Positions 22,927 through 24,948 of a DNA stretch of 64,000 bases are shown here, piece after piece. The notes under the pieces were generated by a model. That model was not told the DNA's origin and ran no database searches. It saw only the letters and a list, made by a program, of their open reading frames with translations. The position numbers were made by a program, and so were the translations under genes. The stretch is from Pelagibacteraceae bacterium (GTDB lineage Bacteria; Pseudomonadota; Alphaproteobacteria; HIMB59; GCA-002718135). The stretch is from positions 62,001 through 126,000 of the forward strand of contig PBDW01000007.1 in the NCBI GenBank assembly GCA_002717485.1, written 5' to 3'. Every line of letters starts with the position of its first letter. The stretch's first letter is position 1.

Positions 22927-24357
22927 TTACACATCGTAATAAAGGTGAAATTCGTATGGATGTGGTCTTAAATTCATCTCATCAACATCATTTTCTTTTT
23001 TCAAAGAAATATATTTTTTTATTAGATCTTCAGTAAAAACATTTCCTTTAAGTAGAAATTTATGATCTTTAGCAAGGGAATCAAGGGCCTCCAATAAGGA
23101 ACCAGGGGCAGAAGGAACTTTTTTTAATTCCTTATCCGATAATTCATACAAATTCTTGTCAACTGGACTGCCAGGGTCAATTTTATTTTCAATTCCATCA
23201 AGACCTGCCATCAACATTGCTGAAAAGGCTAAGTATGGGTTTGCTGCTGTGTCAGGGCATCTAAATTCAATCCTTTTTGATTTCTCACTTTTTGATATAA
23301 CAGGAATTCTAACGGCGGCACTTCTATTTCTTTCTGAGTATACCAAATTAACAGGTGCCTCAAATCCAGGTACAAGTCTTTTGTAAGAATTGGTAGTAGG
23401 TGCACAAAATGCTAAAAGGGCAGGAGCGTGCTTTAGTATTCCTCCTAAATAATATAATGCTAACTTACTTAAACCAGCATAATTATTTTTATCATACATC
23501 AGTGTCTTACCTTTTTTCCATAAACTTTGATGAACATGCATTCCTGAACCATTATCTCCAAAAAGAGGTTTTGGCATAAATGTTGCAGTCATTCCGTATT
23601 GTTTCGCAACATTTTTTACCACATATTTATACTTCATAACGTCGTCAGCAATTTTTAAAAGTGGAGAAAATTCTAAGTCAATTTCGCACTGACCTGCAGT
23701 TGAAACTTCATGGTGATGCGCCTCTACATTTAAACCAATTTCCTGCATAGTGATGCACATTTCAGTTCGCAAATCATTTAGGCTGTCAGTGGGCGGAAGA
23801 GGAAAATATCCTTCCTTGTGTCTCGGCTTATGACCTAGATTTGGATTTTCATCCTTTCCTGTATTCCATGTTCCTTCTTTTGAATCAGCTTCATAAAAAG
23901 AGAAATTAGACCCTGAACTATACTTAATATTATTAAATACAAAAAATTCTGGCTCGGGTCCAAAAAATGCACTATCTGCTATACCCGATGATTTTAAATA
24001 TTTTTCAGCTTTTTTAGCAATATGTCTTGGATCTCTAGAATAATTCTCCTTAGAAATTGGATCGATGACATCACAATGAAAAGCTAGAGTTTTTTCTGAA
24101 GCAAAGGGATCTATATAAGCCGTAGTGATATCAGGAATTACAACCATATCGCTATTATGAATATTTTGAAATCCTCTAACAGATGATCCATCAAATCCAA
24201 AACCTTCTGAAAAAGTTTCTTTATTTAAATATTTTATTGGCACAGAAAAATGTTGAGTAGTGCCTGGCATATCAGTAAACCTTAAGTCCATCATTTTGAC
24301 GTCAAGATCTCTTATTGATTTCTTAAGGTCTTCAATTTTTTTATGTGTAAAATACAT
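22927..24357 (-). CDS. glnA: Glutamine synthetase, type I
   Basis: RFTDMPGTTQHFSVP, FGFDGSSVRGFQNIHNSDM, GSGMHVHQSLWKKG, RNRSAAVRIP, KNLYELSDKEL (conserved Tyr adenylylation region). Start set at 24357 because GGAGG lies 5 nt upstream of that ATG; the ORF-track start (24369) is the ATG overlapping that SD. Confidence 0.95.
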   Translation of the reverse strand: MYFTHKKIEDLKKSIRDLDVKMMDLRFTDMPGTTQHFSVPIKYLNKETFSEGFGFDGSSVRGFQNIHNSDMVVIPDITTAYIDPFASEKTLAFHCDVIDPISKENYSRDPRHIAKKAEKYLKSSGIADSAFFGPEPEFFVFNNIKYSSGSNFSFYEADSKEGTWNTGKDENPNLGHKPRHKEGYFPLPPTDSLNDLRTEMCITMQEIGLNVEAHHHEVSTAGQCEIDLEFSPLLKIADDVMKYKYVVKNVAKQYGMTATFMPKPLFGDNGSGMHVHQSLWKKGKTLMYDKNNYAGLSKLALYYLGGILKHAPALLAFCAPTTNSYKRLVPGFEAPVNLVYSERNRSAAVRIPVISKSEKSKRIEFRCPDTAANPYLAFSAMLMAGLDGIENKIDPGSPVDKNLYELSDKELKKVPSAPGSLLEALDSLAKDHKFLLKGNVFTEDLIKKYISLKKENDVDEMNLRPHPYEFHLYYDV

Positions 24358-24380
24358 AATAACCTCCATATATTAAGTTC

Positions 24381-24419
24381 AAAAAAAATAAGCCCAGTGC
24401 AAACATCGCATTGAACACT
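24381..24419 (-). terminator. Possible attenuator hairpin plus U-tract in the glnA 5' UTR
   Basis: Transcript-sense AGTG-TT-CAA-TGCGATGT-TTG-CACT followed by GGGCTTATTTTTTTT, between the proximal aptamer and the glnA SD. Confidence 0.35.
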
Positions 24420-24456
24420 AAATTTCATGCTTAGTTATGGAAATTATATTAATAAG

Positions 24457-24515
24457 ATCCGCGTTCCTTCAGCTTTCGCCTACTTCCGACTTATCCGTTG
24501 ATAAGTTGAACGATT
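24457..24515 (-). promoter_or_regulatory. Glutamine riboswitch (glnA RNA) aptamer, gene-proximal copy
   Basis: Reverse complement ATCGTTCA-ACTTATCAACGGATAAGT-CGGAAGTAG-GCGAAAGC-TGAAGGAACGCGGAT: P1 CGTTC/GAACG, hairpin ACTTATC/GATAAGT, GGAAGTAG core, small GAAA hairpin, GAAGGAACGC 3' strand. Confidence 0.88.
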
Positions 24516-24526
24516 TTATAACTTTT

Positions 24527-24580
24527 GCATGCGTTCCTTCGACTTTCGTCTACTTCCGTCTCTTTCGAGATGAACGATAC
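24527..24580 (-). promoter_or_regulatory. Glutamine riboswitch (glnA RNA) aptamer, distal copy
   Basis: Reverse complement ATCGTTCA-TCTCGAAAGAGA-CGGAAGTAG-ACGAAAGT-CGAAGGAACGCATGC: same three-way-junction layout with different P2/P3 sequences. Confidence 0.88.
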
Positions 24581-24719
24581 GACGCTGTTACAATAAAAAT
24601 AAAAAAAAATAAAGTATTTTGTTAAAAAATCTTCATTTTATTTGTAAATAGAAATATTGAATATTTGAGAATATCCTTTGTATATTACTGATTCATAATG
24701 TGATATTATATGATTTTAT

Positions 24720-24816: not shown

Positions 24817-24948
24817 CTAAGGATTTTTTAATAGTTTTTTTCTATCATATATTTTCTTATTTTTTATAAGTCTTTGTTTATATTTAGGGCTTCTTAGATC
24901 CTTTGCATATGGATTTCTTTTTTTTCCCCTGTCAGATTTCTCTTTCAT
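24817..24948 (-). CDS. 43-aa basic protein with ArfA-like (ribosome rescue) motif
   Basis: MKEKSDRGKKRNPYAKDLRSPKYKQRLIKNKKIYDRKKLLKNP*. The segment SPKYKQRLIKNKK-IYDRKK aligns by eye with E. coli ArfA [23 protein letters not shown]. Too short for the ORF track. Confidence 0.5.
   Translation of the reverse strand: MKEKSDRGKKRNPYAKDLRSPKYKQRLIKNKKIYDRKKLLKNP

What the first reader, a model, noticed from the sequence alone, without database searches (positions are those of the whole stretch)
24457..24580. Two tandem glutamine-riboswitch aptamers upstream of glnA
On the minus strand the glnA 5' UTR carries two copies of CGTTCA-[hairpin]-CGGAAGTAG-[GAAA hairpin]-GAAGGAACGC. P2 and P3 stems differ in sequence but keep pairing (ACTTATC/GATAAGT vs TCTC/GAGA; GC/GC vs AC/GT plus flanking pair), i.e. 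covariation between the copies. The core matches my recollection of the glutamine riboswitch (glnA RNA motif), best known from cyanobacteria and marine metagenomes. Finding it in tandem on glnA in an apparent alphaproteobacterium is taxonomically notable and may allow cooperative or digital control. The aptamer class itself is not new; the host and arrangement are the interesting part.
Basis: partly seen in the sequence, partly recalled or inferred. Interest (0 to 1): 0.75.

Follow-up and report, generated by a model that had tools for sequence, protein, structure and literature searches.

The report
Tandem glutamine riboswitch on glnA
The RNA leader of the glutamine synthetase gene in this marine bacterium carries two copies of a known glutamine-sensing RNA, which probably share one on/off device that hides or exposes the gene's translation start; the sensor and its doubling were known, but the host lineage, its set of controlled genes and the shared device appear undescribed.

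Summary
Confirmed. Both copies are strong Rfam RF01739 (glutamine-I) hits (66.7 and 63.2 bits, cut-off 35), 100 nt upstream of a true glnA. The aptamer class and its tandem use on nitrogen genes are not new: Weinberg 2010 reported tandems and Sherlock 2022 counted 157 doublets.

108 of 111 genomes of the window's family carry RF01739, usually as tandem pairs (up to four per genome: glnA, two amt genes, and a CP-ATP-grasp/Alpha-E/transglutaminase operon), against 0 of 52 in the sister family. Tandems also occur in SAR86-, SAR92- and SAR116-labelled genomes. (2) The 18-21-nt linker between the aptamers and a strand just after aptamer 2 are more conserved than the aptamers and complementary, forming a helix (P0) around aptamer 2: the consensus fold in all three gene classes (0/100 column shuffles each). 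(3) The downstream strand also matches the gene's own ribosome-binding site or start codon.

The pair thus looks like a two-aptamer, one-platform translational switch, unlike the 'multiple expression platforms' class given to tandem glutamine-I riboswitches. Whether glutamine turns it off (expected) or on cannot be settled from sequence.

The parts
24528..24578 (-). glutamine-I aptamer 1 (RF01739, model 1-53)
   Evidence: cmscan 66.7 bits, E 1.3e-12
24458..24514 (-). glutamine-I aptamer 2 (RF01739, model 1-53)
   Evidence: cmscan 63.2 bits, E 1.2e-11
24512..24532 (-). linker GCATGCAAAAGTTATAAAATC; 5' strand of helix P0 (CATGC and AGTTAT)
   Evidence: 18-21 nt and near-invariant in the family's leaders; 0.93 mean identity among glnA leaders; pairs with 24426-24438
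24426..24447 (-). switch strand ATAATTTCCATAACTAAGCATG: 3' strand of P0 (ATAACT, GCATG), overlapping the anti-RBS stretch ATAATTTCCATA
   Evidence: 0.94 mean identity among glnA leaders; consensus P0 in three gene classes, 0/100 shuffles each; complementary to own RBS
24439..24460 (-). small hairpin P4 (GGA/TCC, TTAT/ATAA) between aptamer 2 and P0, seen in the P0-constrained fold
   Evidence: constrained fold of the window; amt and ATP-grasp consensus folds; weak in glnA-type leaders
24371..24425 (-). poorly conserved hairpin region separating switch strand and RBS; no terminator-like site found in the leader
   Evidence: 0.40 mean identity; terminator scan 0 found
24359..24370 (-). RBS segment TATGGAGGTTAT, complementary over 12 bp to 24436-24447
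   Evidence: duplex -12.2 kcal/mol; 43/2000 column shuffles as good
22927..24357 (-). glnA, glutamine synthetase, 476 aa
   Evidence: PF00120 and PF03951; ORF

Best explanation
It is a translational glutamine riboswitch with two glutamine-I aptamers and one shared expression platform. When glutamine is low, the linker between the aptamers pairs with the strand after aptamer 2 (helix P0), which keeps that strand away from the ribosome-binding site, so glnA is translated. When glutamine binds, the aptamers claim nucleotides at the ends of P0; in particular the C after GGAACG of aptamer 1 is the first P0 base, and that C is the one that pairs with G23 in the liganded crystal form. P0 is then weakened, and the freed strand covers the Shine-Dalgarno sequence (in relatives with glnA-type leaders, the start codon), so synthesis stops. 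Shown by comparison: both aptamers, P0, and the RBS-complementary strand. Inferred: that the two folds exclude each other in the cell, the OFF sign, and cooperation between the aptamers.
For: Aptamers. The linker is constant (18-21 nt) before glnA, amt and ATP-grasp genes in the family's pairs. Linker and switch strand are 93-94% identical among glnA leaders, against 69-79% for the aptamers and 40-60% for flanking parts. P0 is the RNAalifold consensus in each gene class, P 0.95-1.0, against 0/100 column shuffles in each. Switch-RBS complementarity beats column shuffles for glnA (3/400), amt (3/400) and the window (43/2000). The element follows its target: UUUCAUAA faces UUAUGAAA at the glnA start, and AUUUCCAU faces AUGGAGG in amt. 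In the window the P0 fold and the RBS-masked fold are nearly equal in energy, -43.9 and -43.5 kcal/mol. Mimicking bound aptamer 1 lowers mean P0 probability in all three classes. No terminator-like site. The G23-C60 pair forms in the bound state (PMC5393176). Repression of glnA and amt by glutamine is the expected physiology (established knowledge).
Against: Mimicking bound aptamer 2 favours P0 instead, so the model does not give a clean sign. For the window itself, unconstrained folding already masks the RBS, and the apt1-only mimic raised P0 slightly (0.05 to 0.09) although masking also rose. Swapping switch and RBS among leaders of one class does not weaken the pairing, so there is no within-class covariation, and P0 changes are mostly one-sided. 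The window's linker-switch match alone is not significant against its whole shuffled leader (1026/2000). The ATP-grasp class shows no significant switch-start pairing (53/400). The tested cyanobacterial type 1 and type 2 glutamine riboswitches are ON switches (PMC6316151).
Confidence: 0.58

Rival explanations
1. Same parts, opposite sign: glutamine-bound aptamers stack on P0 and stabilise it, exposing the RBS, so glutamine turns glnA on.
For: P0 lies directly between the two P1 helices. Forcing aptamer 2 raises P0 in all classes, and the unconstrained window fold masks the RBS. Tested glutamine riboswitches are ON switches (PMC6316151).
Against: An ON switch on glnA and on ammonium transporters would be positive feedback. 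The liganded form uses the C that P0 needs in aptamer 1 (PMC5393176), and mimicking bound aptamer 1 raises RBS masking.
Confidence: 0.24
2. Two independent riboswitches in series, each with its own platform (pseudo-cooperative), as Sherlock 2022 classes tandem glutamine-I elements.
For: Classification in PMC9481103. In Gammaproteobacteria-labelled loci with a GSII-type glnA each aptamer is followed by its own CCGUUAA hairpin. Some family glnA leaders have a hairpin followed by a T run.
Against: The family's 18-21 nt linker has no structure of its own (mean fold energy about 0) and pairs instead with the single downstream strand in the consensus fold. No terminator-like site in the window leader.
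Confidence: 0.12
3. One aptamer is redundant, or the P0 complementarity is only an inherited by-product of leader duplication.
For: All the leaders are homologous copies, and GCATGC is a palindrome that finds partners easily; the window alone is not significant against its shuffled leader.
Against: Both aptamers score at full strength in nearly all genomes. P0 strands are conserved above the aptamers themselves, and column shuffles do not reproduce P0.
Confidence: 0.06

Closest known systems
Glutamine-I riboswitch (glnA RNA motif, Rfam RF01739)
   Same: Full-length covariance match in both copies, same core, same target gene type (glnA, amt)
   Different: Here in a marine alphaproteobacterial family, paired on glnA in every complete glnA leader examined, with a conserved linker and downstream strand that lie outside the Rfam model
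Tandem glutamine riboswitches (Weinberg 2010 PMC2864571; Sherlock 2022 PMC9481103, 157 doublets and 4 triplets)
   Same: Two adjacent homologous aptamers upstream of nitrogen genes, proposed to sharpen the response
   Different: Classed there as having multiple expression platforms; here comparison points to one shared translational platform
Tandem glycine riboswitch
   Same: Two aptamers, short linker, one expression platform, possible cooperativity
   Different: Different ligand class and fold; here the linker pairs with the strand downstream of aptamer 2, forming the platform itself
gifB and downstream-peptide (glutamine-II) riboswitches of cyanobacteria
   Same: Glutamine-sensing control of glutamine synthetase activity
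   Different: They act on an inhibitor protein and switch on with glutamine; this one lies on glnA itself

Membership tests
Glutamine-I riboswitch (RF01739) | Covariance-model score above the gathering threshold | tested here: met
   66.7 and 63.2 bits against 35
Glutamine-I riboswitch (RF01739) | Binding-site residues: C1-G59 closing pair, G22/G23 and C60 (numbering of the crystal construct) | tested here: met
   CGUUC/GAACG, CGGAAGUAG and the C after GAACG are present in both copies; residues from PMC6698751 and PMC5393176
Glutamine-I riboswitch (RF01739) | Upstream of a nitrogen-metabolism gene on the same strand | tested here: met
   glnA ATG 100 nt downstream
Glutamine-I riboswitch (RF01739) | Selective binding of L-glutamine | not testable with these tools
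   needs in-line probing or ITC
Tandem, pseudo-cooperative riboswitch (separate platforms) | Each aptamer followed by its own expression platform | tested here: not met
   20-nt linker without own structure or terminator, pairing with the strand after aptamer 2; by prediction only
Cooperative dual-aptamer riboswitch (single platform) | Two adjacent homologous aptamers followed by one expression platform | tested here: met
   consensus fold P0 plus RBS complementarity; by prediction only
Cooperative dual-aptamer riboswitch (single platform) | Binding at one aptamer improves binding at the other (Hill coefficient above 1) | not testable with these tools
   needs ligand titration

The most novel reading that the evidence does not exclude
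A two-aptamer, one-platform glutamine riboswitch in which the inter-aptamer linker is itself the anti-sequestering strand, so each ligand-bound aptamer acts on one end of the same helix. In one family of tiny-genome marine Alphaproteobacteria it is copied as a cassette onto glnA, amt and a peptide-ligase operon, with its switch strand tuned to each gene's own ribosome-binding site.
Probability: 0.5. Interest if true: 0.55.

Novelty: new member of a known kind. Interest (0 to 1): 0.38.

Why it matters
A 2018 review called glutamine riboswitches restricted to cyanobacteria and left the glnA/amt-associated ones to unnamed environmental sequence (PMC6316151). The genomes here assign them to a defined family of streamlined marine bacteria and define a small regulon. 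If the shared platform is right, it gives a compact test of how two aptamers share one switch. It also ties the poorly understood CP-ATP-grasp/Alpha-E/transglutaminase operon to glutamine status.

Tried and rejected
Transcription-termination platform: no terminator-like site in the window leader. Some relatives have a hairpin followed by a T run, but it is not general. Single-sequence significance of the leader fold: not significant (z -0.94). Within-class permutation of switch and RBS: no signal. Two RNAalifold set-ups for switch-RBS pairing were faulty (spacer and constraint problems) and were replaced by the column-shuffle duplex test. Some P0-constrained folds failed (energies of 100000) and were ignored. 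Extended P1 of aptamer 1 with C60 bulged appears in the window fold, but the 5' flank is not conserved as AU in amt leaders, so it was not used as a general argument. Ames & Breaker 2011, Klaehn 2018 and Ren 2015 are not held in the library.

Full report
Observation. On the minus strand, RF01739 (glutamine riboswitch aptamer) matches twice over its full length, 24578-24528 (66.7 bits) and 24514-24458 (63.2 bits), against a gathering score of 35. The gene that follows is glutamine synthetase. A search of the whole genome (1.40 Mb, 24 contigs, 85% complete) finds no third copy.

Host and distribution. In the order, 108 of 111 genomes of the window's family (own genome counted) have RF01739 and none of 52 in the sister family does. 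The listed hits are mostly neighbouring pairs, up to eight copies per genome. A sample of 387 Alphaproteobacteria finds it only in this family and in one other (f10), there as single copies. A sample of 399 Pseudomonadota finds only the window's own genome. One family member is contig PTLB01000075.1 of 'Alphaproteobacteria bacterium MarineAlpha5_Bin3' and another is single-cell genome AG-913-B05. From memory, not tested, these belong to the HIMB59 / AEGEAN-169 order.

Targets. Besides glnA, tandem pairs precede two adjacent ammonium-transporter genes and a CP-ATP-grasp / Alpha-E / transglutaminase operon in genus g7. Single aptamers precede a third kind of ammonium-transporter gene in several genomes, and f10 has a single aptamer before the same ATP-grasp operon. 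The window's genome has no detectable ammonium transporter and no CP-ATP-grasp gene, which fits its having only the glnA pair, although the assembly is incomplete.

Anatomy beyond the aptamers. In this family the linker is 18-21 nt whatever the gene, and reads GCATGC-AA(AA)GTTAT-(A)AATC or close to it. Just after aptamer 2 lies a second conserved strand, ATTT(C)CATA[A/G]CTA..GCATG. Among representative glnA leaders the two strands are 93% and 94% identical, more than the aptamers (69%, 79%), while the sequence before the switch strand is 60% and the following hairpin 40% identical. The strands pair (CAUGC/GCAUG, AGUUAU/AUAACU, and in glnA-type leaders AAAUC/GAUUU), enclosing aptamer 2. RNAalifold finds this helix, P0, as the consensus in glnA, amt and ATP-grasp leaders separately (P 0.95-1.0). 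Shuffling the columns downstream of aptamer 2 never reproduces it (0/100 in each class).

Output. The same strand is complementary to the translation start of the gene it precedes. In most glnA leaders UUUCAUAA faces UUAUGAAA at the start codon; in amt leaders UUAAUUUCCAU faces AUGGAGGAUUAA; in the window AUAAUUUCCAUA faces UAUGGAGGUUAU. Against column shuffles this holds for glnA (3/400), amt (3/400) and the window (43/2000), but not for the ATP-grasp leaders (53/400), where the likely first reading frame is a small ORF overlapping or just before the ATP-grasp start. Swapping partners within a gene class does not weaken the match, so the evidence is between classes, not covariation within them. 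The leader has no terminator-like site. In the window the P0 fold and the RBS-masked fold differ by 0.4 kcal/mol, as expected of a switch.

Leader swap. The window's glnA leader resembles amt leaders (mean identity 0.67, maximum 0.70) more than glnA leaders (0.56, maximum 0.62), down to its ribosome-binding site, although glnA-parE-glpK synteny is kept. An exchange of the whole leader cassette with its matched RBS is the simplest reading; an ancestral state is not excluded.

Mechanism and sign. P0 and RBS masking use the same strand, so one platform serves both aptamers. Crystal work shows that the C after GAACG (C60) pairs with G23 in the liganded state, G22 and G23 being disordered in the free state (PMC5393176). 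In aptamer 1 that C is the first base of P0, so binding should loosen P0 and mask the RBS. A folding mimic agrees on average for aptamer 1 but gives the opposite for aptamer 2. OFF by glutamine is preferred on physiology, with ON kept as a serious rival, since tested cyanobacterial elements are ON switches (PMC6316151).

Known or new. The aptamer, its glnA and amt targets in marine metagenomes, and its tandem arrangement are published (PMC2864571; PMC9481103). A search for papers naming both AEGEAN-169 and riboswitch returned one, which does not describe this, and the clade's genome paper does not mention riboswitches. The P0 element and single-platform reading were not found in the held literature, but the primary glutamine riboswitch papers were not available. 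The finding is therefore filed as a new member of a known kind, with a plausible but unproven structural variant.

Noticed in passing
L032:3438-6874 (genus g7); L035-L038 (family f10): Glutamine-I aptamers (paired in g7, single in f10) precede a CP-ATP-grasp / Alpha-E / transglutaminase operon (PF14403, PF04168, PF01841/PF08379). Anbu, often encoded in operons with these proteins, rises under nitrogen limitation in P. putida (PMC5666114), and marine metagenomes link the domains to urea metabolism (PMC3597751). A small ORF with its own start overlaps or directly precedes the ATP-grasp start in g7 leaders.
   Followed up: partly
L091, L111, L139, L158 (SAR86-, SAR92- or Porticoccaceae-labelled contigs): Tandem glutamine aptamers 8 nt apart precede 56-60 aa proteins; L111 matches DUF4278 (E 6.1e-7) and L091 does so weakly (E 1.2e-4). 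DUF4278 is the N-terminal domain of the cyanobacterial glutamine synthetase inactivating factor IF17 (PMC6316151), so these may be inhibitors in Gammaproteobacteria.
   Followed up: partly
L077, L117, L118, L138, L164, L188: Tandem aptamers 11 nt apart precede small basic proteins of 52-54 aa ending in KK-D/E-V/L-FFPYYL, without a Pfam match (two tested); possible glutamine-controlled regulators.
   Followed up: no
L083, L093, L144; L080, L133, L187: SAR86-type loci with three glutamine aptamers before a Gcw_chp protein, and pairs before a long protein that looks like a TonB-dependent receptor (by eye, untested).
   Followed up: no
window 24359-24583 (-): The glnA leader of this genome is of the amt type, including its ribosome-binding site, although amt genes themselves are not found in the genome: apparent cassette exchange between riboswitch-controlled genes.
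   Followed up: partly
window 24820-24948 (-): A short lysine/arginine-rich ORF (MKEKSDRGKKRNPYAKDLRSPKYKQRLIKNKKIYDRKK...) between two opposite-strand tRNA genes; no Pfam match. Its motif recalls ribosome-rescue factor ArfA, from memory only.
   Followed up: partly
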